The translations under genes and the position numbers were made by a program. 64,000 nucleotides of DNA, taken from contig JADLEX010000045.1 in the NCBI GenBank assembly GCA_020845895.1, positions 1 through 64,000 on the forward strand. Reading direction: 5' to 3'. The notes under the pieces are model-generated. The model saw nothing but the letters and a program-made list of their open reading frames with translations, searched no databases and was not told the origin of the DNA. The DNA is from Deltaproteobacteria bacterium. GTDB lineage: Bacteria > Lernaellota > Lernaellaia > JACKCT01. This document shows, one piece after another, positions 1 to 14,562 of the stretch (position 1 is the stretch's first letter; every line of letters starts with the position of its first letter).

Positions 1-162
1 ACGCCCTGATGTCGCGGCGGCTGCTCTCAGGGCGGGTATGGAAACTTTTCGTTCTCGGGTCGGACCACACGTTGTTACGTCGCGGCGGCTGCTCTCAGGG
101 CGGGTATGGAAACTCGACCGGCTCCACCATGGCCGGCCCCATGCAGTCGCGGCGGCGGCTCT

Positions 163-194
163 CCCGCCTCCTCCAAGGCTTCGGCGAGGCAGGC
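163..194. repeat. Hairpin-like insert inside CRISPR repeat 3
   Basis: In the third repeat the first 17 nt (146-162) and last 17 nt (195-211) match the consensus, but the single C between them is replaced by 32 nt. These start CCCGCCT and contain AAGGCTTCGGCGAGGCAGG. With the flanking AGGGCGGG it can pair into an extended hairpin. A near-identical insert sits at the same position in repeat 5. Confidence 0.7.
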
Positions 195-332
195 AGGGCG
201 GGTATGGAAAGTTTTTGCGACCAGAATGACCGCTTCCTCCGAACGGTGTCGCGGCGCTTGCTCTCGGGGCGGGTATGGAGAGGGTTTTACGGAAAAAGCC
301 GTGGCAGTATGTTTCGTCGCGGCGCTTGCTCT

Positions 333-363
333 CCCGCCTTCGCAAGGCTTCGGCGAGGCACGC
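333..363. repeat. Hairpin-like insert inside CRISPR repeat 5
   Basis: Second copy of the insert, 31 nt, between the 17-nt left half (316-332) and the right half beginning AGGGCGGG at 364. It shares AAGGCTTCGGCGAGGCA with the insert at 163-194 and differs at a few bases in its left part. Repeat 7 (from 491) is broken at the same point by an unrelated palindromic stretch, GGCACAGCC paired with GGCTGTGCC. Confidence 0.7.
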
Positions 364-598
364 AGGGCGGGTATGACCGCGACTGCGTCGCAGGGTCGTT
401 GGTTGGTGGTTGGTGGTTGTTGGTCGCGCTGGCGCGAGGGGCGGGTATGGAATCTTTCTTCCCGATAGCCGACGAGAGATGGTACTCGAAGTCGCGGCGG
501 CCGCTCTCCCACCCGGCACAGCCGGGGGCGGCTGTGCCACATGACCCGACGAGGGTTCGCTGGGCGGCGGGTGCGTCGCGTTCCGGAATTGCCGATCT

Positions 599-624
599 CC
601 CTCTCCCGTCATGACGGGAGAGGG
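599..624. repeat. 26-bp perfect palindrome with G-rich direct repeats
   Basis: CCCTCTCCCGTCA is followed directly by its exact reverse complement, so the whole 26 bp is self-complementary. Immediately right of it (625-700) the motif GGGGTGAGG recurs several times. It looks like a dispersed intergenic repeat unit rather than a terminator of a specific gene, since no recognised gene ends here. Confidence 0.75.
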
Positions 625-755
625 CTGGGGTGAGGGCTCTTGGATGGGGTGAGGACCCTTGGCCGTGGTGGGGGCCCCTGCCTGGGGTGAGGGCCCTCGG
701 CCGGGTGGGCGGCAACGTCGCGGGCGGGGGCGCCCGCGCCACACAATGAGAACTG

Positions 756-794
756 CTTCGCGTTCTTCGCGTCTTCGCGTCTTCGCGGTGAAAA
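756..794. repeat. CTTCGCG tandem motif
   Basis: Four near-perfect iterations of a TTCTTCGCG/GTCTTCGCG motif run into GGTGAAAA. This is an intergenic low-complexity repeat of the type seen many times per genome in some high-GC Gram-negatives. The remainder of 625-990 shows no convincing gene, only G-rich repeats and the leader of the following sigma-like gene. Confidence 0.5.
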
Positions 795-990
795 TTCGGT
801 GCTGCTCGACGCGGCGCTGGACATGTCCGACGCGTTGTATTAATCGATATCCGTTCCCTTGAAATTCGAACCGGCTTCAACGCGTCGCTTTTGACATCAT
901 ATCGATGAATCCGAGCAGCCCGTGATTCCCTGCGGCGTTGCGCGGTGCGCATCGAGGTGTCGAGGCGCGGCGGGCACGGCGGGAGAATTC

Positions 991-1752
991 ATGGCGCGCG
1001 ATATCGCCGAGCAATTCGATGCCCTCACCGACGAGGAACTCTGGATTGCCGTTTATCGCGACCTGCGTGTGGAGCTGTTCTGGACGCTGGCCGCGAGATA
1101 CCGCGGCGACATCGTGTTTTATGCGATCAAGATGGCGGCCCGCTCGAGCAGCTCCGAGGATCCCGAGAGCGTAGCCGAGGAGTTTTATCGCTGGTGTCTG
1201 GCGGACGAGCTGGCGCGGAAGTGGCGATCCTTTGATCCCGAGCGCGGCTATCGTCTGAAAACCTACACCAAAACCATCGTCCCTTCCCTGTGGGCGGCAT
1301 ATTACGAACGCGAGCTGTCGTGGGCGGCGAACTTTTTTGTTCGCGGCGCCCGCGTGGATGGTTACGGCATCCCCGTGATGCCCAAAACGGGGACGTTCGC
1401 CGTTTCCGCGGATACCATCGTCGATGTTTATCGGCGGATTCTGGCCGCGCGGGAACTTGTCAATCAGCTCAAGGGCCGCGAGGCATATATTCTTCAATCC
1501 CTTTGGATGCCGGTGTGGCGGGAATATGGAGAACGCGCGGCGAAATATCTGCGGGAGCGCCTCGGGCTCGATCCCGCGCGCGAAGCCCGGACCATGCTGC
1601 GTCTGGCCCGGACCGGAGGCGAACTCGCGGTACGCAACCGTCTGTGCAAAAAGTTGGGCATGACCAAGGGGGCGCTTTTCACCGCCACACACCGCGCCAA
1701 GGCCGCATGGACGGCCCTGTGCGTCGCCCACGGCCAACTGCCCGAGAACTGA
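991..1752 (+). CDS. Sigma-70/ECF-like sigma factor in CRISPR locus
   Basis: 253 aa, soluble. The ATG at 991 is chosen over an upstream start because GGGAG precedes it. Residues about 30-110 resemble sigma region 2: a helical segment with acidic residues and EEFYRWCL, then ELARKWRSFDPERGYRLKTY, where the FDPxRG turn is typical of ECF-like factors. The C-terminal 60 residues resemble region 4, with a helix-turn-helix-like stretch around NRLCKKLGMTKGALFTATHR. Inferred role: redirecting RNA polymerase to target promoters. It sits between the CRISPR array and the cmr operon and is followed 190 bp later by two translationally coupled genes, one Lon-protease-like. A regulated sigma released by proteolysis is therefore an attractive idea. 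The family assignment is by eye; it could be another HTH regulator. Confidence 0.55.
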   Translation: MARDIAEQFDALTDEELWIAVYRDLRVELFWTLAARYRGDIVFYAIKMAARSSSSEDPESVAEEFYRWCLADELARKWRSFDPERGYRLKTYTKTIVPSLWAAYYERELSWAANFFVRGARVDGYGIPVMPKTGTFAVSADTIVDVYRRILAARELVNQLKGREAYILQSLWMPVWREYGERAAKYLRERLGLDPAREARTMLRLARTGGELAVRNRLCKKLGMTKGALFTATHRAKAAWTALCVAHGQLPEN

Positions 1753-1941
1753 GGCCGGCGGCCAGAACGGGACCCGACAAAAAATTTCGCGATTTCCGTA
1801 AGATCCGCGCCGATACACGGGTATGAAGTAGACGGATTGGCTTGCCCTTTTCGACCGGCGCCTTTAACGAGGACCTGGGTCGAGTTGCGGCGCATCGACC
1901 GAGTTTGATTGCGCCTGTTTGCGGCGCAAGAGGTGCGGCGA

Positions 1942-3117
1942 GTGGCCGGAAATTCGGGCCCCAAGGGGCCATCCGATAAACCGTTGGATCTCGCCCGTTC
2001 GTTGGCGGAGCTGGCCGGCAAGGGCGCGCATGGATCCGACGACGCCGTCTGGAATCTGGCGGTGCGTGTCGGACTCTATCTGCGCCGCGGTGGACGCATC
2101 GAGCTGTCCGCCACCCTGCCCCATGCGGCGCGGATTGTGCTCTCGCAAATCGCCCGGTTGAACTTTCCGGCTTCGTACGACCGCTTGGCGCGGCGACTGC
2201 GCCGACGTTCGAATCCGCTCGACCAGAACGCCGCGCTGGAATTCCTGCGTCGCCGCGACGACGCGCAGGCGGCGTGGCACGCGGTCATGGCCGTCATCGA
2301 CCCCGCGAGGTCGTGCGGAGACGCGGAGGCGACCCGGCGGATGGCCGAAATGCACCGGTTGTGGACCGCGGACGAGGCGTTCTTCACCGAATTCGCGTGG
2401 GCGTTTTTTGAAGCCGAAGACTGGACGATGTGCGAGCGTCGGATGTTGTTCGATCCGGTGATCGCAGCGGAATACCCGTGGTTCACCCTCTTGCCGCGTG
2501 CCTGGGACGAGGTCTGGCTCGCGCCGCCGATCGGGCCCGCGGCGGATGTGTCGGCGCGGCAATCAAGACCTGGACTCGGCTCGCGCACGCATTCGGCCGC
2601 CATCGATCGTGCGTTTCGGCGGGTGCTCGACCTGTCGCCGCGGGTCGGAAAGGCGGCCATTCTCCAAGCTCTCGCCCCAGGGGCGGCGGCCGCCGACGAC
2701 GAATCACAGGCACGTCGTTTCGCGTTCACTTCGTTGGCGGATCGACTTGCCGGCGAAATCGGCGTGCTGCGCGTACGCGTGCGTGCGCCGGGGGAGTGTC
2801 CCGAGATCACCGGGGGCAAGGACGCGATCGTCGAGGTGGATGTGGCGGTTGACCGCGCGGGCGCACTGCGCTTTGTCTTCGGCGATGGAAACGGGACGGC
2901 ACGCACGGACGCCGACGGCGCGGTCGTCCATCTGGGCAAGCGCTGGGCCAACGTGAAGGACGGCGTTGCGGTGATCCGTTGTGACGATCCGGCGGAGTTC
3001 TATCGCCGCCTCCGCGCGCTCCCCGATTCGCTCGCGGTGGTCTGGATCGACGGTAGAATTCTCTATGGAGAGTCTGTTTCCGCCGAGAACGCCGCGGGCG
3101 ACACCGCGCCGCCATGA
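1942..3117 (+). CDS. Hypothetical protein coupled to Lon-like protease
   Basis: Unrecognised, 391 aa from the GTG at 1942, which has AGAGG about 8 nt upstream; a TTG at 1909 would add 11 residues. No signal peptide or membrane helix. The N-terminal 200 residues are rich in Arg, Ala and Leu and look helical, possibly repeat-like. The C-terminal 120 residues look like alternating strand and helix, ending in AVVWIDGRILYG. Its TGA overlaps the ATG of the Lon-like gene (ATGA), so the two products are probably made in fixed proportion and may form a complex. By position it could be the sigma inhibitor or protease substrate (the CalpT role) or the signal sensor. That is inference from context only. 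Confidence 0.6.
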   Translation: MAGNSGPKGPSDKPLDLARSLAELAGKGAHGSDDAVWNLAVRVGLYLRRGGRIELSATLPHAARIVLSQIARLNFPASYDRLARRLRRRSNPLDQNAALEFLRRRDDAQAAWHAVMAVIDPARSCGDAEATRRMAEMHRLWTADEAFFTEFAWAFFEAEDWTMCERRMLFDPVIAAEYPWFTLLPRAWDEVWLAPPIGPAADVSARQSRPGLGSRTHSAAIDRAFRRVLDLSPRVGKAAILQALAPGAAAADDESQARRFAFTSLADRLAGEIGVLRVRVRAPGECPEITGGKDAIVEVDVAVDRAGALRFVFGDGNGTARTDADGAVVHLGKRWANVKDGVAVIRCDDPAEFYRRLRALPDSLAVVWIDGRILYGESVSAENAAGDTAPP

Positions 3118-4370
3118 CGGCCGCGCTATTGTGGAGACGACTTCGCGCGGCGGGCCACGATCCGATCCGCCTCGCCCGTCTCTGCCAAACGCTTCCCGAT
3201 CTCCTGGCGCCGATTCTGACCGACGAAGCGCTGAACCGAGTGCTCGAGTCCGGCCGGGCTTGGCTCGACGAGTCCGCGACGGCGACATTGACGCGCGTGC
3301 GGGATATCGCCCAGGCGGGCGAGCGCGAATTCGGAGAAACCGACGAACGATTTCACGACGTCGCGCCCTGCCCGATCGTTTTCGCATGGCGAGCGTCGCC
3401 GGGATCGTCATACGCACCCGCCGCCGTGGTGGAGGGTGTCATTCGGATCGGCGCCCAGCAGGGACGCGTGGGTCGGATGTCTTTTCAGCATGCCGTCGAA
3501 GAAGCGCTCACACTGGCCGACGCGATGGTTCCGGGGCCCGAGCGGCCGATCCTGCGCTTGCGCCGCGAAGAATGGGCGACGCTGCTCGACGACGGCAGCG
3601 CGGGTTTTGCCGTGTTCTTTCACGCGGTGAGCCTGCTGCTGGCCGTGCCGGTGATGGGGAATCTCGCGATTTCGGCGGGGCTGGAGAACGGCCGGCTCGC
3701 GCCCGCCGCGCGCATCGCCGACAAGGCCCGGGCGGTGCGCCGGTCGGGGCGTGGCATTTTCGTGGTGTGCGGCGACGACGCGGCGCGCGCCGCGGTGGAC
3801 GCGGAGCCGTCGCTCTCGGTGATCGCACTGCCGCAGGGAGCGTCGGCGGTGACGGCGTTCGGTATCGCGATCGGCGAGCTCATTCTGAAGTGCCTTTGGC
3901 AACCGCTGCACATCGCACCAACCGCGCGGTTTCTGCTCGAGCGCGCGCGGATCTCGGGTCGCCGCGGATTTGACGTGCTCGACGACCTCGGACGCATTGT
4001 GATGATGCTCGCAATGTCCCCGCCGCCGCCGTGCGAGGACGAGGATCTGGACGCGCTGCGCCTCGACGCCCTGCGGCTCGATTGCGCCCTGCTGGCCGAG
4101 CGCGGGCGATGGGACGCGCTGGCACGCGCGCTCACCGATCTCGACCGGCTCCTGCGCGACCTCGAGGCGGATCGGGCGTGCCCGTCGAATTTCGAGGATG
4201 CCTACTGCGACTGGCCGCTGTTCATGGCGGCGTTCTGCCGAGGCATCGGGCGCGGAACCGATATCCGCGAGCACCTGGCCGAGGCGCGGCACCGTGCGTC
4301 GAAATTCTGGCCGCCGAACCGGCGGCGCGTGGAGAGGATTGCGGAACTCGAGCGGGTCTTTCTGGCTTGA
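3114..4370 (+). CDS. Lon-like (S16 fold) protease domain protein
   Basis: 418 aa, soluble, no AAA module. Residues about 100-260 follow the order of the Lon proteolytic domain: GVIRIG, a helix, DDGSAGFAVFFHAVSLL (compare DGPSAG in Lon), LAISAGLENGRLAPAARIADKARAVRRSG (compare the strand-turn and GG-KEKLLAAHR segment), IFVV, then LSVIALPQGASAVTAF. Ser162 and Lys204 are 42 residues apart, against 43 in E. coli Lon (S679/K722), so a Ser-Lys dyad is plausible. The N-terminal 90 and C-terminal 150 residues are helical and unassigned; no SAVED or CARF domain was recognised. ATGA overlap with the preceding gene. It lies inside a type III-B CRISPR locus and resembles, in logic, the signal-activated protease CalpL. 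Protease activity is inferred. Confidence 0.6.
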   Translation: MTAALLWRRLRAAGHDPIRLARLCQTLPDLLAPILTDEALNRVLESGRAWLDESATATLTRVRDIAQAGEREFGETDERFHDVAPCPIVFAWRASPGSSYAPAAVVEGVIRIGAQQGRVGRMSFQHAVEEALTLADAMVPGPERPILRLRREEWATLLDDGSAGFAVFFHAVSLLLAVPVMGNLAISAGLENGRLAPAARIADKARAVRRSGRGIFVVCGDDAARAAVDAEPSLSVIALPQGASAVTAFGIAIGELILKCLWQPLHIAPTARFLLERARISGRRGFDVLDDLGRIVMMLAMSPPPPCEDEDLDALRLDALRLDCALLAERGRWDALARALTDLDRLLRDLEADRACPSNFEDAYCDWPLFMAAFCRGIGRGTDIREHLAEARHRASKFWPPNRRRVERIAELERVFLA

Positions 4371-4376
4371 CCGGGT

Positions 4377-6182
4377 TCAGGATTGCGGGCGATTGTCCGC
4401 AACGAAATCCACGCACTTCTTCTTTTTTACGTCTAGCCAATTCAGGATGCGTGTTCCGCACAGGAATCCGAAATAGGCAAAAACGGACGCGGCAACTCCC
4501 GAGCCGATTCCCCATACCAAGAGTCGTTTGTCGCCATCGGGATAAAGCGAAAGGCTGAGCCCGGCGAGAATCGCGGCGACAACCGCGACCGCCACCGCGC
4601 TAATGTTGAGGTAAGCGATCTGGCCGAGGCGGGTATTGATCTTGGACAGCGAGAACTCGTGCAGGGCTTTGATCTCCGCGTCGACCTCCTCGAAGAGGCG
4701 GACGTTGCTCATGTTCCGGTTCCACAGGTCGAACATCTCGATGCCCTGCTCCTGCGAAGTGATCTCGCAAAACCAGTACTTGTTGTGGAAGAGCAGGAAG
4801 TCCTGACGCAGATCCTCGATCTCCCTGGCCAGCTCGGGGTGGTCAACGCCCCGGTCGTGGATCTTCTGTGTGATCTCGGCGCTGCGTTCCGAGAAACGCA
4901 GGAGCCCCGCGCGCAGCGTGACGAGCAGATTCGCCATCTGGAAGTACATGGTTTCGAAGTCGCGGCGCAGTTTGGTTCGCGCAAACCAGTTTTCGTCGCT
5001 CGTGCCTTGGACCAGCATAACGCCGCCGTAGCGGCAGAATCCGTAGACCGTGCCCAAGTCCCGATAGCGCAGGTAGAGCGAAGATTCGAGCAGATGGTCG
5101 CGGATGAGCGAATTCTCGTGGTAAGTGTTCTTCGCCGGGTCCGCGAAGACCAGCCGATAAAGGAATTCGCGGTATGCCTGAGACTCGCCCGTCAGTTCTC
5201 CGAACGGGTTCTGGGGTTCACGTGGGTTCGAGGACATCGTCGCCCCAAGCGGCGTGAATCCCGTGATGCTTTCGTGGAGATACGTATAAGACCAGTAAAA
5301 TCCCCGCTCGTCGAAAATCGGTCCCTCGACTTTCAGGTCCGGGCAGCGGATGTCGGCTACGAATCGGTCTATCCAGAACTGGAAGTGGCGACCGATATAC
5401 CCATCTTGTGGGCTGTCGGACTGGTTTCCCATGACGAAACAGTCGAATCGAGCTCCGAAGTCTTCCGAGGCTCCCTGGCCGTCCGCACTTGGAACGTTGG
5501 TGAAGTTCCCTTTCTCATCCAGGAAGCCGAAACGCACGAAATTTGGAAGCTCGCCGATACCCTTCTGCGAGGCACCCCATCCTTCGTCGGGCCGATGGTC
5601 GGCGTTTCCCCGAAACATCTCCGCTTCGCCGATATCCACGAACGACGGCCCCCGACGGCGAAGCAGATTCGTCACGTCGAAGGCGTCGGCCATCGTCAGG
5701 AGCGTCTGATTTCCCTGCTGAGCGACCTTGCGGCTGTCCCAGACGACTTCGATCGAAAGGATCGCCACGTCCACGTCGTAGAGCATCACCGCGACGTCTT
5801 CGACGCGAAGCCGCACGAATCGTTCCGATTCCTCCCGATCCATCCGTCTCGGCAAACCGATCTCGACGTAGAGGTTTTTCTTGCAATCGTCCTTCAGATT
5901 GTAGACATAAAGCGCATCGAGCGACCCGGATCGATCAGCCGCCTTTTGGTTTTGCGGCACGAACAGCAGCTTTCGCGCGTGCGGGTGGAAGTAGACGTAT
6001 TCGGCGTAGGTATCGGGACGGCCGATCTGGATCTCGGGCGAAGCGGTTTGAAACCACGCTCCCGAGAGGGATGCCCGTTTGCTCGCGGGAATGGACTTGA
6101 ACGAGCCCGCGGCGAGCCGCAGCGGCAGGAAGAAGAAGGACTTGTACAGCCACACGCGCTCGGCGTCCGGGGTCTGCGTCAT
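4377..6182 (-). CDS. CorA-like two-TM membrane protein, candidate type III effector
   Basis: 601 aa. Last gene of the cmr operon: it starts 24 nt after the cmr6 stop on the same strand, with GGAG upstream. Residues 1 to about 400 are a soluble domain I do not recognise. Residues about 400-520 are long amphipathic helices (QMANLLVTLRAGLLRFSE, EIEDLRQDFLLFHNKYWF). Two hydrophobic helices follow at about 525-550 and 557-582, then a basic cytoplasmic tail. A long helix followed by a C-terminal TM pair is the CorA topology, but the GMN signature of Mg2+ channels is absent. CorA-family proteins are known ancillary effectors of type III-B systems, where membrane activity follows a Cas10-made nucleotide signal. 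Here that role is inferred from operon position and topology. Confidence 0.55.
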   Translation of the reverse strand: MTQTPDAERVWLYKSFFFLPLRLAAGSFKSIPASKRASLSGAWFQTASPEIQIGRPDTYAEYVYFHPHARKLLFVPQNQKAADRSGSLDALYVYNLKDDCKKNLYVEIGLPRRMDREESERFVRLRVEDVAVMLYDVDVAILSIEVVWDSRKVAQQGNQTLLTMADAFDVTNLLRRRGPSFVDIGEAEMFRGNADHRPDEGWGASQKGIGELPNFVRFGFLDEKGNFTNVPSADGQGASEDFGARFDCFVMGNQSDSPQDGYIGRHFQFWIDRFVADIRCPDLKVEGPIFDERGFYWSYTYLHESITGFTPLGATMSSNPREPQNPFGELTGESQAYREFLYRLVFADPAKNTYHENSLIRDHLLESSLYLRYRDLGTVYGFCRYGGVMLVQGTSDENWFARTKLRRDFETMYFQMANLLVTLRAGLLRFSERSAEITQKIHDRGVDHPELAREIEDLRQDFLLFHNKYWFCEITSQEQGIEMFDLWNRNMSNVRLFEEVDAEIKALHEFSLSKINTRLGQIAYLNISAVAVAVVAAILAGLSLSLYPDGDKRLLVWGIGSGVAASVFAYFGFLCGTRILNWLDVKKKKCVDFVADNRPQS

Positions 6183-6206
6183 CGTGCGTTCGCTCCGTTA
6201 CTCGTT

Positions 6207-7061
6207 CTAGACCAGTCGACCGTAACCGCTCGACGTTTTCGCGCCGATTCCGTCGTTCTTCAAGGCTTCCAGGAGAATCCGCATGGCGAGTGCGGTCCAG
6301 TCCCGTTCTCCCTCGAGCGCGATCAGGAACTTCGTGCCCGGCGCGACGTTGATGTACGCTACAGGGGTCGGGCTGTCCCAGTCCGCGGGAGGCGAATCGT
6401 CGCCCCGATAATAGTTCGGGTGATGCACGGTCATCACGTCCGGAAGGAACGGCTTGCCTCCCGGACCGCTGCCCGGGATGTACCACGCGTCGTGGAAGAT
6501 CACGCCGCCCGCGCCCGCCACGTGGCCGAACAGCAGGTCGTGCGTGGTGAAGTCCCAACCGTGTTGCTCCTCGTTTTCACGTCGCTGCTCCGGCGTCCAT
6601 GCAGGCGAGGGCATGTACTGCTTGCGGACCGGATCGGTCACGTCGTCGGACGTCGCATGTTCTTTCGCGAGCCCGCCGTACACGCGGCGGCAGGTGTGCG
6701 ACGCGAGGCCCTTGAGCGCCGAGCCGGGCAGGATCGGCACGCCGTAGGTGCGATGCAGCCGCAGCGAGGTTTCGAGCACGCTGTCCGCTCCGAGACCCAC
6801 CGCGATGCGGGAGGAGGCGGAGACGGGACTCTGAGAAAATCGATCGGCATCCGCGAATCGACTGTTCCAGCGCTCGAACGCCCCTGAGTAGGCTGGTCCG
6901 AACGAATTCAGTCCGGCCAGCTTGACGTACAGCTGCTTTTCGGAATCGTGAGCCGGCTCCCCCAAGCTCGCCACATAACGTTCGAGCGCGAGTCCAGCAT
7001 GGCTGAATGCGATGAGGTTGGGGTCCGGAAAGTGGTTTCTGCGCGCCTGGACTTCCGGCAT
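6207..7061 (-). CDS. cmr6: Type III-B CRISPR RAMP protein Cmr6
   Basis: 284 aa, usual size for Cmr6, the subunit capping the 3' end of the crRNA backbone in the Cmr effector. Recognisable RAMP features: an N-terminal helix rich in basic residues, the glycine-rich loop GSALKGLASHTCRR, then LLFGHVAGAGGVIFHDAWY and DVMTVHHPNYYRG, all characteristic of Cmr6. The start codon shares one base with the cmr5 stop (TGATG), so translation is coupled. The next gene downstream is the CorA-like protein. Confidence 0.9.
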   Translation of the reverse strand: MPEVQARRNHFPDPNLIAFSHAGLALERYVASLGEPAHDSEKQLYVKLAGLNSFGPAYSGAFERWNSRFADADRFSQSPVSASSRIAVGLGADSVLETSLRLHRTYGVPILPGSALKGLASHTCRRVYGGLAKEHATSDDVTDPVRKQYMPSPAWTPEQRRENEEQHGWDFTTHDLLFGHVAGAGGVIFHDAWYIPGSGPGGKPFLPDVMTVHHPNYYRGDDSPPADWDSPTPVAYINVAPGTKFLIALEGERDWTALAMRILLEALKNDGIGAKTSSGYGRLV

Positions 7062-7462
7062 CAGCGATCTCCTCGTGCGGCGTCGTTAGTGGGATCGAGG
7101 CCATAGATCCCCTCGGCGTAGCGCTTGTACCAAATGGACGCGTCGAGAACCTGGCGCGTCGCGAGCGCATACTTCCGAGTGTCGGGGAAGGATTGGATTT
7201 CCGTCTGCACCGTGTTCTGCGTGTATCCAAGAATCGCAGCCAGGTCAGAGAGCACCCAGCCGAACTCGGGCTTTTTCTGCTCGTCGTACTTACTGGCGAT
7301 AAACGCCACGGCCTGCGAGAGGCCGTTCGTCAGAACGAGATACGGCAGACGCATCCAGAGTCCGCCGTACTTTTCCATCTTGTCCTTTTTCGCGACACGA
7401 GCCGGCGTCTGCATGTGGACATACGCGAGACGGGCCCATTTCTGCGATTGAATCTCCGCCAT
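7061..7462 (-). CDS. cmr5: Type III-B CRISPR small subunit Cmr5
   Basis: 133 aa, all-helical, matching the small Cmr5 subunit that lines the target RNA in the Cmr complex. The pattern of an N-terminal basic helix (SQKWARLAYVHM), a middle TNGLSQAVAFIASK segment and a C-terminal YALATRQVLDASIWYKRYAEGI helix is typical. ATG at 7462 with GGGAGG upstream. It sits between cmr4 (12-nt gap) and cmr6 (1-nt overlap), the standard position. Confidence 0.9.
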   Translation of the reverse strand: MAEIQSQKWARLAYVHMQTPARVAKKDKMEKYGGLWMRLPYLVLTNGLSQAVAFIASKYDEQKKPEFGWVLSDLAAILGYTQNTVQTEIQSFPDTRKYALATRQVLDASIWYKRYAEGIYGLDPTNDAARGDR

Positions 7463-7474
7463 CGTCGTCCTCCC

Positions 7475-8392
7475 TCAAGCGCCCGCGATGAAGCGGGCGA
7501 CGCCGCGGCCCACGGTGGCCTTGCCGCCGAACTGCGTTGTGCGGTCGGCTCCGGCGGCGCCGACGGCGTGATCCAGAACCTGTGCGTCCGTCAGGTTGAC
7601 GTCGCTCTTACGGGATTTCTCGCCCATCGCGACGCCCCACAGCAGGCTCTCCGCAGGGAGGGCTTCCTCGTACCAAAGCTGGCCGTTGGCGACCGTCTTG
7701 GTGTCTTCCGCGATCCGAATCCGCGCGCAGATCTCGGTCGCGGTTTCATAGAGGAAGGCGAAGTCGTCATCCGAAACGATGACAAAACGCGCTTTGAAAA
7801 GTGCTCTCCACGTCGCGGCGGCGGAATTTGGCGTTGCTTGGATGGGCCAGAGCAATGATGAGAAATGCGTCGCCCACAAGTCGGCTGTCTCATTGCCGGG
7901 ACTCGTGCCGTTAGGCGGATTCACAGCGACCTTCAACTTCAGATCTTCCAGATAGACTGACCCCGCCGCGACAACCCCGCCATTGGCGGGAGACTTCGTG
8001 AAAACGTCGGCGTCCGCGAAGTCGAACTCAAATTGAGCCGGAGTGCCCATCGCGTCCCGCCGATACCGCTCCAGCACCATCGGCGACGTCACCCACGCGA
8101 AAGTGCCGTACAGCGAACGCACGGGCAGGCACAGCAGCCGCGCGTCGCCGAACACGATCGCCCCCGCATAATCGCTCGCATTTCCGGTCTCGGGGCCGAA
8201 GACCGCCGTCTTTTGATCGTCCGCCAGACTCGATTCCGCGCGTAAAACGCCCTTGACGGTGCTGCCGGGCACGATGGGCAATTTCGTCGCCTTTTCGCGC
8301 GCGATGGGCAGGTCGACGAGGCCGATGCCCTGTCCCGTTCCGGCGTGCAGCGGCGAGAGCGCGTGGATGAAGTACATACGTTTCGCGGTCAT
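7475..8392 (-). CDS. cmr4: Type III-B CRISPR RAMP nuclease subunit Cmr4
   Basis: 305 aa. Cmr4 forms the repeated backbone of the effector and cuts target RNA at 6-nt intervals. The N-terminal signature HALSPLHAGTGQGIGLVDLP contains Asp27, which aligns with the catalytic Asp of Pyrococcus Cmr4 (D26), so RNA cleavage is probably retained. The RAMP glycine-rich loop follows as VPGSTVKGVLR. ATG at 8392 with GGAGGG upstream; an internal ATG six codons in is an alternative start. Downstream of cmr3 by 19 nt. Confidence 0.92.
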   Translation of the reverse strand: MTAKRMYFIHALSPLHAGTGQGIGLVDLPIAREKATKLPIVPGSTVKGVLRAESSLADDQKTAVFGPETGNASDYAGAIVFGDARLLCLPVRSLYGTFAWVTSPMVLERYRRDAMGTPAQFEFDFADADVFTKSPANGGVVAAGSVYLEDLKLKVAVNPPNGTSPGNETADLWATHFSSLLWPIQATPNSAAATWRALFKARFVIVSDDDFAFLYETATEICARIRIAEDTKTVANGQLWYEEALPAESLLWGVAMGEKSRKSDVNLTDAQVLDHAVGAAGADRTTQFGGKATVGRGVARFIAGA

Positions 8393-8411
8393 GATTTCCC
8401 TCCTCGCGCGT

Positions 8412-9563
8412 TCACCACGCGCCCCAGACGGCGAGTCCGAAGCCGTCGTGTTTAAGATTCGCCAAACCGTTCGACTCGGGCGCGTCGCCGTCGCTCATCG
8501 AAGACGCGAGCCACAACGCATCCGGGTTCACTTCCGTGTTGTCCACCTTCTCGAAGAAATAGACCGACCCCGCCGGCGTCATCCGACGCAGCGGCTTCGG
8601 CCCGCCTTCGATCCACTTTCCGTTTTCCAGGCGACGCTTGATCTCCCAACCTGCCAGCGGCTTCCATCGCGGAATGCGTGCGCCGACGAGCTCAACCTCC
8701 GTTTGGGTCCCCGGGATTTTGCCCTTGAATGTTTGTGGGTCGATCCAGTGGGGTCGCCAGCCACCGGCGTAGATGGCTGGCGTCACGAGCACCATGCACA
8801 GTTGGGTCGCCGATTCGACGGTCGTTTTCCACGTCGGGGGCACAGTTGGCCAAGCGTCAACGACCGAGAAGTCCGCAAACCGCCCCTCGCCACCGATGCG
8901 GTGCGTGTAGCCGTTCAGACCGTCCGCGCTCGTGTTTCCCGTGTCGACGATCTTGACGACGAGCCCGGTCGTGACTTCCTTGCCCTGAAAATCGATCGCC
9001 TCCGTCGAGAACAACATGCCGGGTACTCCGGCGTAGTTGCCGCCTATCGCCACGTGCGTGCGCCGGTCGCGCTCGAGGGAAATGCCGCCGATGGACGACT
9101 GGTCGATCGACTCGCCCCCAGGGATGAGCCACTGACTTGCGAGATCTGTGACCTTCCAGAAGTCGCACGCCTTCCCGTATTCGGGTTTGCCGGCCTTGCT
9201 ATTGAGCGGAAGTCCGACCGGTTTGAGACCGCCGGGCAGATTGCATCCGGCTCCCGGCAACTCGACGGGCCGCAACCGATGAAACGCACCACCTTCCGGA
9301 TACGCATCCGCGGGCGCGGGGACGTAGACCTCGCTTCCGACGCGCAGCAGCGGCCCCTGGAATTTCCAGTTCACGACCGTGTCGGCCATGGCCTGGGGGA
9401 AGTCGTCGTTGTTTGCCTTTCGAACGATGGCTGTGCGCAGAGTCCCGGCCACGGCGCTCGGCGTGGGAAAGGGCAGCGACACCGCGCCACCCGCGCCCGT
9501 GTCGAAGGGTTTGGGATCGCGAAAGATCAGCGGACTGTTGGGAGTGATGACCACGCACGTCAT
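8412..9563 (-). CDS. cmr3: Type III-B CRISPR RAMP protein Cmr3
   Basis: 383 aa from the ATG at 9563, which overlaps the cmr2 stop (ATGA) and has a strong AAGGAGG upstream; the open frame extends further but those residues are antisense to cmr2. The start VVITPNSPLIFRDPKPFDTG and the following PFPTPSAVAGTLRTA are the conserved Cmr3 N-terminus, which binds the crRNA 5' handle and contacts Cmr2. The rest is typical in size and order. Confidence 0.92.
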   Translation of the reverse strand: MTCVVITPNSPLIFRDPKPFDTGAGGAVSLPFPTPSAVAGTLRTAIVRKANNDDFPQAMADTVVNWKFQGPLLRVGSEVYVPAPADAYPEGGAFHRLRPVELPGAGCNLPGGLKPVGLPLNSKAGKPEYGKACDFWKVTDLASQWLIPGGESIDQSSIGGISLERDRRTHVAIGGNYAGVPGMLFSTEAIDFQGKEVTTGLVVKIVDTGNTSADGLNGYTHRIGGEGRFADFSVVDAWPTVPPTWKTTVESATQLCMVLVTPAIYAGGWRPHWIDPQTFKGKIPGTQTEVELVGARIPRWKPLAGWEIKRRLENGKWIEGGPKPLRRMTPAGSVYFFEKVDNTEVNPDALWLASSMSDGDAPESNGLANLKHDGFGLAVWGAW

Positions 9564-11527
9564 AACGCGCCTCCTTGCTGCGCCGCCGGGGCGTTCGGAA
9601 CATCGACCGCCTCGCCGGAGTCGAGATAGGCCGGCAGCAGGGCGCGCGCCACAATGATCTCCTCCGCCATCTGCCGGAGAGACAGCCAAGCCTGATGTGC
9701 GAACGCCTCTTTCACAGTGTCGTTCGCCTCAGTCGGTGGCTCGGGAATCCGGTCGAGAATCATCTCGCGGACACGCTTCGTCAGTTGGTCTTGTTCGCCT
9801 TTCTGTTTTTTACCCAGCAGGCGTTTCAACTCGACGTGGAGCAGCTCCGCCGTGACCCAAGTTTCGCCGTTCTGATCCGTGATCGGCCCGGTCTGGCTAG
9901 CGTTCCCATAGTGGCGTGCGAGCGTGCGCATCTCGTATGCGAGGCGGTCTGGAATCAGATCCTCTCGCAGCAGGTGGACCCATCCCTTCATCCGCGTGAC
10001 GGGGCTGGTGTGTTCGTGATAGGCGTCGCCATGCGTCGCGTCGGGCCACGCCATGCGCAGTTTGATCGGCGCGCCGGAGCGTTTATAGAGGTGAAACGCC
10101 ACGGCGTTACCGCGTTTGCCATCGGCCTCCGCGAGTCGTTTATCCTCGGGGATCAAATTCGCGTTCGCAAACTCCCAACGCCCGCTCTTGGCGTCCTTCT
10201 CGGCGTCATGGGCGTTCTTGATCATTTCGCCCGCCATGGGCGTGAGCATGTGGACGATCGCCACGCCGACCGAGATAGTGCATCCCGTCACGTTCGTTCG
10301 AAAGCTCTGCTGAAGCGCTTCCACGCAATCGAGCATCCGGTCGAGCGGCACGAAGGCCAGCACGTCATCGCCGCCGGCGAAGATCGCGCTGCCGTTGGCG
10401 GCGGTTTCGACAATTTCATTCACACTATTTGCAAACGTCTGCATCCTCTGTGAGATTTCGCGATTCTCCTGAGGTGTCTTCGCGTCGCGGATCATCTTCC
10501 CCATCCCGTCGCCATCGCAGGCGATGACGGCGAGATATGGGCAAGGGGAAATTTTCGCACCGGTGACGATGTCTTTCAGGTCCTTCAGGTCTTCGACGTA
10601 GCTCGGGTAATCGCCCTTCAGACTGTCCAAGCGATCCGCAAAGAGTTGGTGGCCGTCGAAACAAAAGTCGCCATAACGGGTTTCATTCGTGTAGGAGAAG
10701 AATCCCGAGCGATTTTGTCCCTTCAGGTCCTCCAATTTTTGCCGGACCCCCAATACGGCTTGCTTCTGTCGATCGCCGTCGTCTCGGCGCATGACCCCGC
10801 GAATGAACGGATCGACCGCGATGCGCGAGCCTGGCGGAAAGTGCTCGTCGCCGGCGAGGCGTTTCACAAGGCCGGGCAGGTCGAGCATTTCGCCAGGTTT
10901 AATGCCCAGCTCGGCGCGGTGGTTGCGCCGATTGTCCGCCTCGAGCAGGCGTTGCAGCACGGACTCGCGACGCCCGTCCAGCGACGATTTGGAGACGCGA
11001 TGCGCCTGAAGGCTCGGAACGAAATCGCTGAATTCCTCCCGGGCGTCTAACAGGCGTTCTACCTGAGATCGACCTGCCCGAAAATCGTTTTCATCGAGAG
11101 GAACCCACGCCGAATAGAACTCCACGCGCTGCTCGACTTTTTGCTCGTTCCAGACGTTGTCGTGAAAACCCAAATCGGGACCGTTGTTCAGCTTGTCTTG
11201 AACATCGTCGATCGCGTCATTCCACGGAGCGTACGCACCGACTCCGGCTTTCCCGCTCGCGTCACGTGGATCGACGCCATCGGGCAGGATCGCGAGGACT
11301 CGATCCGAGGTGGGCACGGGATTCACCGAGCCGTCTTCGCGAAAATGATCGTTCAGCGGCGGCGCGATAAAATCGACTCCGTGGACCGCTCTCTTGAGGG
11401 CCGCCGCTGCGGCCAGCGCCGTCTTCTCGACGAAGTTCGACGACCAATGCAGATCGCGCGACCGGCGCGACGCTTCAATGAATTCCTGCACCGGCCCCAC
11501 CGAAAACATGAACAGGTGTTTTGCCAT
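9560..11527 (-). CDS. cmr2: Type III-B Cas10 subunit Cmr2, cyclase motif intact, no HD
   Basis: 655 aa. Large signature subunit of the Cmr complex. It begins at once with the ferredoxin-like/palm segment (LFMFSVGPVQEFIEASRRSRDL); the N-terminal HD nuclease domain of many Cas10 proteins is missing and no HD pair is visible elsewhere. The second palm domain carries ACDGDGMGKM and, at residues 385-388, GGDD within FAGGDDVLAF, so conversion of ATP to cyclic oligonucleotides or a related nucleotide signal is expected on target RNA binding. Length fits an HD-less Cmr2 (HD-containing ones are about 850-1000 aa). ATG directly follows the TAG of the upstream cmr1 copy, with GGAGG as ribosome site. Confidence 0.93.
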   Translation of the reverse strand: MAKHLFMFSVGPVQEFIEASRRSRDLHWSSNFVEKTALAAAAALKRAVHGVDFIAPPLNDHFREDGSVNPVPTSDRVLAILPDGVDPRDASGKAGVGAYAPWNDAIDDVQDKLNNGPDLGFHDNVWNEQKVEQRVEFYSAWVPLDENDFRAGRSQVERLLDAREEFSDFVPSLQAHRVSKSSLDGRRESVLQRLLEADNRRNHRAELGIKPGEMLDLPGLVKRLAGDEHFPPGSRIAVDPFIRGVMRRDDGDRQKQAVLGVRQKLEDLKGQNRSGFFSYTNETRYGDFCFDGHQLFADRLDSLKGDYPSYVEDLKDLKDIVTGAKISPCPYLAVIACDGDGMGKMIRDAKTPQENREISQRMQTFANSVNEIVETAANGSAIFAGGDDVLAFVPLDRMLDCVEALQQSFRTNVTGCTISVGVAIVHMLTPMAGEMIKNAHDAEKDAKSGRWEFANANLIPEDKRLAEADGKRGNAVAFHLYKRSGAPIKLRMAWPDATHGDAYHEHTSPVTRMKGWVHLLREDLIPDRLAYEMRTLARHYGNASQTGPITDQNGETWVTAELLHVELKRLLGKKQKGEQDQLTKRVREMILDRIPEPPTEANDTVKEAFAHQAWLSLRQMAEEIIVARALLPAYLDSGEAVDVPNAPAAQQGGAL

Positions 11528-13063
11528 CTAGTAAATCCTCCTGCCGCCGTTGTTCTTCACCCACTCGCGAAACGCCGTGAGCACCTTCTGGCCGGCGGGG
11601 GCGGTCGTGACGGCGGGCGATCGCAACGGCTGATAACGCACCCCCGTGTCCCCCGCGCCCGAAATCGTGTCGAACGGCGCGGCGCTGCCTTTGACGTAGC
11701 GGTCCTTATCCTCGGCGTTCGGTGCCGCGTGCGGGTCCATCAACACGACCTGCCCATCGGGCGGATCGGTCTCGAACCCCACGATGACGGGGAGAAACTG
11801 GTCCTCACCAACCTGAATCGCCTTCGTGATGACCGGACTCGCCAGACGGTCTTGAATTTTTCCGGCGGAATCGATCCACGCGAGAGTGAAGTTGTGCTGT
11901 TCCCTGTTGTCCCAGCCTATCGGTTTCCCAGTGATTTTGTCCCTGCGAAGCACAAAGCCCGGGTCTGGATTCGCGTAGGGCTGGTCCTTCCAATCTTTGT
12001 TTTGAAAACGGGTGATGATCGGAAGACCAAGTGAAGAACGCGGCCAAGCGGGGTCACCGAGGTGCTCGGTGTGCGGGGTGTGTTCCCACTTCGTAAATGG
12101 CTTTGGAATCGCGGCCAGTTTGCGAATCTTGTCCGGCTCCGGCCAGTCGGTGCGACGCAGGCGATGCTTCTTTTTTGGCTTCCCCGGTCGTGACTCGTCC
12201 TGCCGGAATCGCTTGACGAATCCCACCGCGGATGCCCAAGCGTCCTTCACGTTGGTGGAATCGTCGCTGCCAATCTGCATCCACGACCATCGCAGATTGG
12301 GAATGTGCCGCGCCCATTTCGGCGGCTTACCTTCCGGTCGAACCCAACCCAAGGGGTGTTCAATCGCCGGATTGGATTTCGAGTCCAAAAACTTCGGACA
12401 CACGTCCTCTGGACTCAAATATCCGGCGACACCGGACAGCACTTGGATCGTCCCAGCGCCGCGTCGTGTCCGACTACCGTAACCGCCGAAACAGATCCAA
12501 GCCCGAACCGCGGTCATGACGTCGTCGCTCAATGCTTTGGGGAAACCGAGTTCGAGCGTGAACTGCTGGTGGACGAAGAGCGGATCGGGATTCTTTCCCG
12601 GCGCCGGTCGCGACGAAAACATCGCATAAGCGCTCGCACCGCCGATATCGTCCGGCCAAACGATCGGCAAACCGTCCGGATCCTCCCCGGATGTCTCGTC
12701 CGGCTCGACCGATACAGCCACCGCCGACGGCTTCGACTCATACTCCGGCTCCGTCCGTCCGGGCTTCGGTGGGACCTGAAAGTGAACGCCCCCCCAGATC
12801 TCCTGCTCATTCTGAAACAGTTCATCGATCGATTTGAATTTCGCGAAGTCCTGCGTCGCCCGCCACCAGAAACGAAGGTGCCCGCGCACCGACGCCGCGC
12901 GGATCGGCTCGATCTCGTGGAACTTGCGCGGCTCGACGCCGCCGCCGAAGACGGGCGTCGCCACCCGCAGACGCACGCTGAACGATGTTCCGGCGTGAAC
13001 CTCGATCGGAAGAGCTTCCGTTGCCGGTGCAGTGTGATGTGCCAGATTTCGTCGCGGGGACAC
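11528..13063 (-). CDS. cmr1: Type III-B RAMP protein Cmr1, copy A
   Basis: 511 aa. N-terminal RAMP signature VRLRVATPVFGGGVEPRKFH followed by AASVRGHLRFWWRATQ, diagnostic of Cmr1, which sits at the head of the complex near the crRNA 3' region. A second Gly-rich stretch (WICFGGYGSRTRRGAGTIQ) is the conserved Cmr1 motif at about residue 195. It is longer than textbook Cmr1 (about 340-450 aa), with insertions in the C-terminal half. It opens with the same MSPRR as the gene just upstream, 14 nt away, so the two are tandem paralogues that have diverged. The stop abuts the cmr2 start. Confidence 0.88.
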   Translation of the reverse strand: MSPRRNLAHHTAPATEALPIEVHAGTSFSVRLRVATPVFGGGVEPRKFHEIEPIRAASVRGHLRFWWRATQDFAKFKSIDELFQNEQEIWGGVHFQVPPKPGRTEPEYESKPSAVAVSVEPDETSGEDPDGLPIVWPDDIGGASAYAMFSSRPAPGKNPDPLFVHQQFTLELGFPKALSDDVMTAVRAWICFGGYGSRTRRGAGTIQVLSGVAGYLSPEDVCPKFLDSKSNPAIEHPLGWVRPEGKPPKWARHIPNLRWSWMQIGSDDSTNVKDAWASAVGFVKRFRQDESRPGKPKKKHRLRRTDWPEPDKIRKLAAIPKPFTKWEHTPHTEHLGDPAWPRSSLGLPIITRFQNKDWKDQPYANPDPGFVLRRDKITGKPIGWDNREQHNFTLAWIDSAGKIQDRLASPVITKAIQVGEDQFLPVIVGFETDPPDGQVVLMDPHAAPNAEDKDRYVKGSAAPFDTISGAGDTGVRYQPLRSPAVTTAPAGQKVLTAFREWVKNNGGRRIY

Positions 13064-13077
13064 GGTCGCGTTTCTCC

Positions 13078-14562
13078 TCAGAACACCAGCCGGTAGGCCC
13101 GTTGCTGCGCGGTAAAATAGGTCAGGAACGAATCCAGCGCGTTGTCCGCCGCCGTGCCCGTGTGATGTGCATTCATCGGCGCAACGCGAGCAGCCTTGGT
13201 GCGGTCGTGAAGCTCCGCCGCCGTCGGGCGATACGGCAAGCCCGGGTGCGCGCCGGGCTGAGTTTTCACCACGAGATCGCCGACGAGTTGCCGCGGCTTC
13301 ACGCCGTTCAGCACGAGCGCCATGGCGCAGTAACGCACCTGATCCTGCGCATTGCGGAACGCGAAGGGCCGGATGATGAGCGGAGAGCCGAAGCGATCGG
13401 TATCTTCGTGCGTGAGCATGGCGTTCGCCGGCTCGTCTTTTCTGGGATCGTTTCGATCATCCTTGAACTTGAAGATGATCGGCAACCCGAAATCCGCTCG
13501 TGGGAAGAAGATGTCGTCATTCTGATGAGGCGGATGCGCCCAATTCGCGGGTTTGTGACCGCGCCCATCCGCCAACCGGCGCAGCGCATTCGGTTCCGGC
13601 CACTTGCTGCGTCCGGGATGGTTGGCTCCCGCAGGCGCAGCGTCGCGGCCATCGGGCGCTTGCCGGAACTTCTGAAATTCCGTGACGGCGGCCTTCCACG
13701 CCTGATAGGGGTCGGGGAACGACTGCGTGCCGACACGCAGCCGCGCGCCTTCGAGCGTCGGCCAGTCGTGAGCGGTCTCTTCGACCGCGGGGAGGCCGAT
13801 GCCGATGCGACCGGTAAATTCCGAAAATGCGGTGGCGGTGCCGAGTTCCGCGCTCGCGGGGACGCGGTCGATATCCATCAGTGCGCCGAGCCCCCGCCGC
13901 GTGCGCGCCCCGATGCCGCCGAACAGCACCCAGCAACGAAACGCGGCTTCGACATCGGCCTTGGCCGGCGCGCCGAGCCGTGAATGATCGAGATGCAGCG
14001 TGAATTCCACGAACCGCGTGGCAAACTGTTGATTGTGACCGACGCGGACCTTGGCCGTGGGGACGGGCGCGTTTCCCTGAAGCTCGGCACTCGGACGCTG
14101 GAGAGGAAAGAGAGCGTATCCCGCGCCCGCGCCAAATGCCCAATTCGGCAGGGGTTTTGGCTTGTGCGTGTTGGGATTCACCTCGTGCACGCCGGCCGGA
14201 ATCGTCACACCCTTCTTCGGCGCGTTTCCCCACTCCACCCACAGCTTGACTTTGGACTCTTTCGACTCTTCATCGCCGCCCAGCGCGGTTCCGCCGAAGA
14301 TCTCCGCCTCGTCGGCCCGCAATTTGGCTAGGCCGTCCGTCCCACAGTAACGCTGCCGGTGGCCGACCAGCGCGCGCCACCAAAAACGCAGGTGTCCGCG
14401 GATCTCGGGCACGCGGATGGGATCGGCATCGTCGGACTGCTGCGCCTGCGCCCCGCCGCCCATGATGGGGGTGATGACACGCAGGTTGTACGACTTCACA
14501 TCCGTGGTTTTCGCACCCGGAGTCGGCTTCGGATCTGTCGCCAGGGCTCTACGAGGGGACAT
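13078..14562 (-). CDS. cmr1: Type III-B RAMP protein Cmr1, copy B, first gene of the operon
   Basis: 494 aa. Same architecture as copy A: MSPRR start, NLRVITPIMGGGAQAQ, RVPEIRGHLRFWWRALVGHRQ, and WVLFGGIGARTRRGLGAL at about residue 220. Both copies have intact frames and conserved motifs, so neither looks like a pseudogene; sequences between the motifs have diverged well beyond a recent duplication. ATG at 14562 has GGAGG 6 nt upstream. It is the promoter-proximal gene; the AT-rich region at about 14600-14720 is the likely promoter. Confidence 0.88.
   Translation of the reverse strand: MSPRRALATDPKPTPGAKTTDVKSYNLRVITPIMGGGAQAQQSDDADPIRVPEIRGHLRFWWRALVGHRQRYCGTDGLAKLRADEAEIFGGTALGGDEESKESKVKLWVEWGNAPKKGVTIPAGVHEVNPNTHKPKPLPNWAFGAGAGYALFPLQRPSAELQGNAPVPTAKVRVGHNQQFATRFVEFTLHLDHSRLGAPAKADVEAAFRCWVLFGGIGARTRRGLGALMDIDRVPASAELGTATAFSEFTGRIGIGLPAVEETAHDWPTLEGARLRVGTQSFPDPYQAWKAAVTEFQKFRQAPDGRDAAPAGANHPGRSKWPEPNALRRLADGRGHKPANWAHPPHQNDDIFFPRADFGLPIIFKFKDDRNDPRKDEPANAMLTHEDTDRFGSPLIIRPFAFRNAQDQVRYCAMALVLNGVKPRQLVGDLVVKTQPGAHPGLPYRPTAAELHDRTKAARVAPMNAHHTGTAADNALDSFLTYFTAQQRAYRLVF

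What the first reader, a model, noticed from the sequence alone, without database searches (positions are those of the whole stretch)
991..4370. Candidate CRISPR protease-sigma factor signalling cassette (Calp-like) in a type III-B locus
Between the CRISPR array and the cmr operon lies a tight + strand cassette: sigma-70-like protein, unrecognised 391-aa protein, Lon-fold protein with S162/K204 spaced 42 residues apart (43 in E. coli Lon). The last two overlap by ATGA. Established knowledge: in the Calp system a Cas10-made cA4 signal activates a Lon-SAVED protease that cleaves an inhibitor and frees a sigma factor. Here the parts list is the same but sequences look different and no SAVED or CARF domain was recognised, so the sensor may be new or hidden in the 391-aa protein or in the helical termini of the Lon-like protein. 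If correct, this is a divergent or new class of type III signalling to transcription.
Basis: partly seen in the sequence, partly recalled or inferred. Interest (0 to 1): 0.92.

Follow-up and report, generated by a model that had tools for sequence, protein, structure and literature searches.

The report
Lon protease–sigma cassette beside CRISPR
Next to a type III-B CRISPR immune system lie three genes for a transcription (sigma) factor, an unknown partner and a cut-down Lon-type protease; they look like a protease switch for gene expression, but no other genome was found to carry them, so the link to CRISPR rests on position alone.

Summary
Three coding + strand ORFs (991-1752, 1942-3117, 3114-4370) lie between a CRISPR array and a convergent corA-cmr operon. 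Gene 3 is a Lon-type proteolytic domain with the Ser162/Lys204 dyad, no AAA+ ATPase, and an all-helical C-terminus instead of a SAVED domain. Gene 1 is an ECF-like sigma factor (regions 2 and 4). Gene 2 has no recognisable fold.

The parts list matches Calp, but the defining SAVED sensor is absent. This locus probably does not signal with cA4: it encodes the CorA effector of the SAM-AMP pathway, and its Cas10 carries both acidic residues reported for SAM-AMP synthases. I found no homologue of any of the three genes: not in about 950 genomes, not in plasmids, phages or viral contigs, not in 80 CorA loci, and not in the nearest related locus (44% identical CorA). Co-occurrence with type III is therefore untested.

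Best reading: a protease, inhibitor and sigma switch analogous to Calp and Craspase, with unknown trigger. It would be a new variant if CRISPR-controlled. An unrelated regulatory cassette is about as likely.

Side finding: the Cas10 groups with Thermus-type Cas10s, yet has the SAM-AMP signature.

The parts
1..513 (+). CRISPR array, distal (trailer) end; 36-nt repeat GTCGCGGCGGCTGCTCTCAGGGCGGGTATGGAAACT, degenerate toward the cassette; the contig begins inside the array
   Evidence: Two perfect repeats 68 nt apart, then degenerate or interrupted copies; exact repeat recurs only on contig C111
991..1752 (+). gene 1: ECF-like sigma-70 factor, 253 aa (P0001), with a long linker or insertion around region 4
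   Evidence: Pfam Sigma70_r2 E=0.0021 on residues 74-100; region 4 matches an ECF sigma of the same genome, 4 of 1000 shuffles as good; coding pattern
1942..3117 (+). gene 2: 391 aa (P0002, GTG start; TTG 1909 also possible), helical residues 13-272, beta-rich 278-369; candidate sigma inhibitor and protease substrate
   Evidence: No significant hit in Pfam, NCBIfam, PADLOC, PHROGs or PDB; AF2 without alignment, pLDDT 41, only secondary structure usable
3114..4370 (+). gene 3: 418 aa (P0003), AAA-less Lon-type Ser/Lys protease (about residues 85-240; S162, K204) with an all-helical C-terminal domain (245-418)
   Evidence: phmmer to Lon in PDB E=0.0081; alignment with 27 Lons; AF2 pLDDT 84-93 in most of the core; Foldseek to Lon proteolytic domain E=1.7e-6; shuffle test
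4377..6182 (-). CorA-like type III effector, convergent with gene 3
   Evidence: PADLOC CorA E=4.8e-59; RR and D(D/E) motifs of SAM-AMP-binding CorA aligned
6207..9566 (-). cmr6, cmr5, cmr4, cmr3
   Evidence: PADLOC and Pfam
9560..11527 (-). cas10/cmr2, GGDD cyclase site, D75 and E164 as in SAM-AMP synthases
11528..14562 (-). two cmr1-like RAMP genes (11528-13063, 13078-14562)
   Evidence: for the first; RAMPs E=3.6e-18 for the second

Best explanation
A protease-gated sigma-factor switch attached to a SAM-AMP-type III-B CRISPR locus. At rest the gene 2 protein holds the ECF-like sigma factor (gene 1). On target-RNA recognition, an unknown signal activates the AAA-less Lon-type protease (gene 3). 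The signal could be SAM-AMP, or direct contact with the Cmr complex through the helical domain of gene 3. The protease cuts gene 2, and the freed sigma factor redirects transcription. Shown by sequence: Lon-type domain with an intact dyad, sigma-like protein, gene order, coupling of genes 2 and 3, neighbouring type III-B locus. Inferred: protease activity, gene 2 as inhibitor and substrate, and any control by CRISPR.
For: Lon domain with S162/K204. Sigma regions 2 and 4. ATGA overlap of genes 2 and 3. Position between array and corA-cmr, 6 bp from corA. The same three functions in series are established for Calp (PMC11417357) and Craspase (PMC10028731). Absence of CARF and SAVED fits a locus whose Cas10 and CorA point to SAM-AMP (PMC10600005).
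Against: Single genome. No homologue in about 950 other genomes, in plasmids, phages or viral contigs, in 80 CorA loci (no Lon or ECF sigma there either), or in the closest locus L018. No sensor domain found. Not in an operon with cas genes. No promoter motif shared by the cassette, the cmr operon and the array leader.
Confidence: 0.36

Rival explanations
1. An ordinary regulated-proteolysis cassette (sigma factor, inhibitor, protease) that answers some other stress and only happens to sit at the end of the CRISPR array.
For: Absent from the closest related CorA III-B locus and from 80 other CorA loci; convergent with corA, not in its operon; no CARF or SAVED; no shared promoter motif.
Against: Same parts as two known CRISPR protease-sigma systems; wedged between array and effector genes with only 6 bp to corA.
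Confidence: 0.4
2. The Lon-like protein is a scaffold or adaptor rather than an active protease, and the cassette works by binding, for example as a partner-switch around the sigma factor.
For: The usual GPSAG of Lon reads DGSAG here; about 20% identity to Lon; no ATPase to feed substrate.
Against: Both catalytic residues and the small residues around them are kept, and AF2 gives high confidence around both; the known CalpL also works without AAA+ (PMC11417357 for its activity; its domain make-up partly from background knowledge).
Confidence: 0.1
3. A true Calp system, with a cA4-binding SAVED domain too diverged to recognise.
For: Same parts list.
Against: The C-terminal domain of gene 3 is predicted all-helical, whereas SAVED is alpha/beta (background knowledge); no SAVED or CARF hit; no Calp chain among the PDB sequence hits; SAM-AMP-type locus.
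Confidence: 0.04
4. A sub-version of the best explanation (its confidence is part of the 0.36): type III-linked, with the helical C-terminus of gene 3 docking on the Cmr complex, so no messenger is needed (Craspase-like logic).
For: All-helical C-terminal domain; Craspase pairs a TPR protease directly with the effector complex (PMC10028731).
Against: No homology to TPR-CHAT; helix packing in the model is low to moderate confidence (pLDDT 43-80).
Confidence: 0.12

Closest known systems
Calp (CalpL/CalpT/CalpS, CRISPR-associated Lon protease)
   Same: Lon-type protease, a middle protein and an ECF sigma factor encoded together beside type III cas genes
   Different: No SAVED domain; helical C-terminus; sigma gene comes first here; middle protein has no sequence match; SAM-AMP-type rather than cA4-type locus
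Craspase / CASP (Cas7-11, Csx29, Csx30, CASP-sigma), type III-E
   Same: Protease, inhibitor and ECF sigma logic in a CRISPR locus
   Different: Protease there is caspase-like (CHAT) with TPRs; effector is single-protein Cas7-11; here a multi-subunit Cmr with cyclase-type Cas10
SAVED-CHAT / prokaryotic caspase cascade, type III-B
   Same: Type III-B locus with a proteolytic output
   Different: CHAT and caspase proteases, cA3-binding SAVED; none found here
CorA / SAM-AMP type III-B systems (Bacteroides fragilis type)
   Same: CorA effector and the two acidic Cas10 residues
   Different: No NrN, DEDD or SAM-AMP lyase gene seen; Cas10 groups with Thermus/Allochromatium, not with the Cas10s of other CorA loci; extra Lon-sigma cassette
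Lon protease (family S16) proteolytic domain
   Same: Fold and Ser/Lys dyad
   Different: No AAA+ or substrate-binding N-domain; extra helical C-terminal domain

Membership tests
Lon / S16 proteolytic domain | Ser/Lys dyad in Lon-type fold | tested here: met
   (the AF2 model used Lon sequences in its alignment, so one search is not independent)
Lon / S16 proteolytic domain | AAA+ ATPase module (canonical Lon) | tested here: not met
   418 aa, no AAA+ hit
Calp system | SAVED (cA4-binding) domain on the protease | tested here: not met
   no SAVED or CARF in Pfam or PADLOC; residues 245-418 all-helical
Calp system | ECF sigma factor encoded with the protease | tested here: met
   region 2 is below the curated Pfam cut-off, so distant
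Calp system | CalpT-like anti-sigma substrate cut by the protease | tested here: inconclusive
   gene 2 has no sequence match and no usable model; cleavage not testable
Calp system | cA4 produced by the locus Cas10 | tested here: inconclusive
   intact GGDD, but D75/E164 signature points to SAM-AMP
Craspase / CASP (type III-E) | Cas7-11 effector with TPR-CHAT protease | tested here: not met
   canonical cmr1-6 and Cas10; Lon-type protease
SAM-AMP (CorA) type III-B | CorA effector with the RR and DD motifs | tested here: met
   R175 R176 and D291 E292 aligned
SAM-AMP (CorA) type III-B | acidic residues at both SAM-site positions of Cas10 | tested here: met
   D75, E164 against N/K in Thermus and D/K in Allochromatium; columns taken to be B. 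fragilis D70/E151 by conservation and place
SAM-AMP (CorA) type III-B | SAM-AMP-degrading enzyme (NrN, DEDD or lyase) | tested here: inconclusive
   none recognised among the genes of the window's CRISPR region or contig C111; rest of genome not searched
ECF sigma-70 factor | regions 2 and 4 | tested here: met
   region 2 Pfam E=0.0021, below curated cut-off; region 4 reached by 4 of 1000 shuffles

The most novel reading that the evidence does not exclude
A new class of CRISPR signalling to transcription: a SAM-AMP-type III-B system (or its Cmr complex directly) activates a SAVED-less, AAA-less Lon protease through a new helical sensor, releasing an ECF sigma factor.
Probability: 0.25. Interest if true: 0.88.

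Novelty: new variant of a known kind. Interest (0 to 1): 0.58.

Why it matters
CRISPR systems that answer infection by cutting an anti-sigma factor are known with SAVED-Lon and with caspase-like proteases. A SAVED-less Lon version in a SAM-AMP-type locus would show that this output has been wired to a different signal, and to my knowledge would be the first transcriptional effector of the SAM-AMP pathway. It also suggests that SAM-AMP synthesis arose, or was transferred, outside the described CorA-1 group of Cas10s. That is testable by purifying one complex.

Tried and rejected
Homologue searches for genes 1-3: 386 genomes with gene 3 and 193 with gene 2; 60 with gene 1; whole phyla of two other genomes, 195 with genes 2+3 joined (long query, few candidates scored) and 359 with gene 3; phylum of G104; plasmids and phages; viral contigs; GTDB contigs with exact 8-residue words. 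All gave only canonical Lons, weak chance-level matches or nothing. A query with synthetic variation to loosen the words found nothing in viral contigs. Then 80 CorA loci from GTDB were screened for trio members and for any Lon or ECF sigma: none. A shared sigma promoter upstream of gene 1, gene 2, cmr and the array leaders was sought; the best matches, gene 1 upstream against the two leaders, had p=0.03 and 0.07 over nine comparisons, so rejected. AF2 of gene 2 without alignment failed (pLDDT 41). A Lon profile built from 18 Lons scored gene 3 best in the window but only E=0.56; pairwise and structure tests were stronger. Rfam gave no hits in the first 20 kb.

Full report
What is there. The window starts at the end of contig C45 of a 4.98-Mb, 171-contig genome. 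Bases 1-513 are the distal end of a CRISPR array: two perfect 36-nt repeats with a 32-nt spacer, then degenerate and interrupted copies. The same repeat is found nowhere else in the genome except in two arrays on contig C111. C111 also holds a Cas6-RT-Cas1 fusion, so C45's array very probably continues into C111 (inference). Downstream on the + strand are genes 1, 2 and 3. After a 6-bp gap, tail to tail, comes a - strand operon: corA, cmr6, cmr5, cmr4, cmr3, cas10, and two cmr1-like genes.

Are the three genes real? All have the codon-position G+C signature of the neighbouring cas genes. Genes 2 and 3 overlap by ATGA. Genes 1 and 2 are separated by 189 bp.

Gene 3 is Lon-like. phmmer against all PDB chains puts human and bacterial Lon first, E=0.0081 for the best, with S162 and K204 on the dyad. 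Pairwise alignment to the genome's own Lon scores 103; the best of 2000 shuffles scores 72. With 27 Lon proteolytic domains the alignment is colinear and A91, G97, G117, S123, A127, D159, S162, A163, G164, S173, G193 and K204 are invariant. AlphaFold2 with that alignment gives pLDDT 84-93 for most of residues 120-258, with a dip at 140-160, and Foldseek finds Lon proteolytic domains (E=1.7e-6, target TM about 0.70-0.78 for isolated Lon domains). The model was helped by Lon sequences, so the Foldseek result is not independent. A Lon profile scored it only E=0.56 among about 1000 sequences, so the relation is distant. There is no AAA+ module. Residues 245-418 are predicted as helices only, and no CARF or SAVED model hits anywhere in the trio.

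Gene 1 is sigma-like. Pfam Sigma70_r2 matches at E=0.0021, below the curated cut-off. The C-terminus aligns with region 4 of an ECF sigma of the same genome better than 996 of 1000 shuffles. Gene 2 has no significant match in any library and no usable model.

Which messenger? The neighbour is a CorA-type effector. In published work CorA of group CorA-1 answers SAM-AMP, and Cas10s of that group carry two acidic residues, D70 and E151 in B. fragilis, near the SAM site (PMC10600005). I aligned this Cas10 with 57 Cas10s from CorA loci plus Thermus and Allochromatium. The two conserved acidic columns read D75 and E164 here and D and E in G104; Thermus has N and K, Allochromatium D and K. I take these columns to be D70 and E151, by their conservation and place; the B. 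fragilis protein itself was not aligned. A tree groups this Cas10 and that of G104 with Thermus and Allochromatium, support 1.0, apart from the Cas10s of the other CorA loci. So the signature occurs in a second lineage. CorA keeps an RR pair and a D(D/E) pair that I take to be the ones tested in B. fragilis. SAM-AMP is therefore the more likely messenger; this is a prediction.

Is the trio tied to CRISPR? Only by position. The closest related locus, in genome G104 (44% identical CorA, same style of Cas6-RT-Cas1), has no trio member. Eighty CorA loci from GTDB have none, and no Lon or ECF sigma near CorA. Searches of about 950 genomes, plasmids, phages and viral contigs gave no homologue. No common promoter motif links the cassette to cmr or the array leaders.

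How it most likely works. Sigma factor, partner and protease in a row is the layout of regulated proteolysis. Calp (PMC11417357) and Craspase (PMC10028731) are CRISPR examples in which the middle protein is an anti-sigma factor cut by the protease. By analogy gene 2 is inhibitor and substrate. The trigger is unknown: SAM-AMP, contact with Cmr, or something unrelated to CRISPR. I put CRISPR control (all versions together) at somewhat under one in two.

Verdict. It works like a Calp-type switch on paper but is not a Calp member, since the SAVED domain is absent. If CRISPR control is shown, it is a new variant of the CRISPR protease-sigma kind.

Noticed in passing
window 9560-11527 and L018:1941-3695: Cas10 of the Thermus/Allochromatium lineage carrying the SAM-AMP-type acidic pair (D75, E164; K in the relatives at the second site), beside a divergent CorA: a possible second origin of SAM-AMP signalling.
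   Followed up: partly
L234 (contig C111) 881-13296, minus strand: Operon of HerA/TraG-like ATPase, vWA protein, Tubulin_2 protein, an 831-aa protein, transglutaminase-like protein and DUF1232, on the same contig as Cas6-RT-Cas1, between two arrays of the same repeat; vWA systems with tubulin-domain proteins near CRISPR were reported in PMC10910872.
   Followed up: partly
window 1-14562 and L234: No NrN, DEDD or SAM-AMP lyase gene recognised although corA is present; such enzymes are described as near-obligate partners (PMC10600005).
   Followed up: partly
window 146-212 and 316-375: Two degenerate CRISPR repeats are split by a similar insertion of about 25-30 bp (CTTCGGCGAGGCA[G/C]G).
   Followed up: no
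window 11528-14562: Two tandem cmr1-like genes of about 500 aa each.
   Followed up: no
L018:15087-17009: In G104 a Clp-type AAA ATPase gene lies between two stretches of CRISPR repeats of the related III-B locus (read from the translation, no family search).
   Followed up: no
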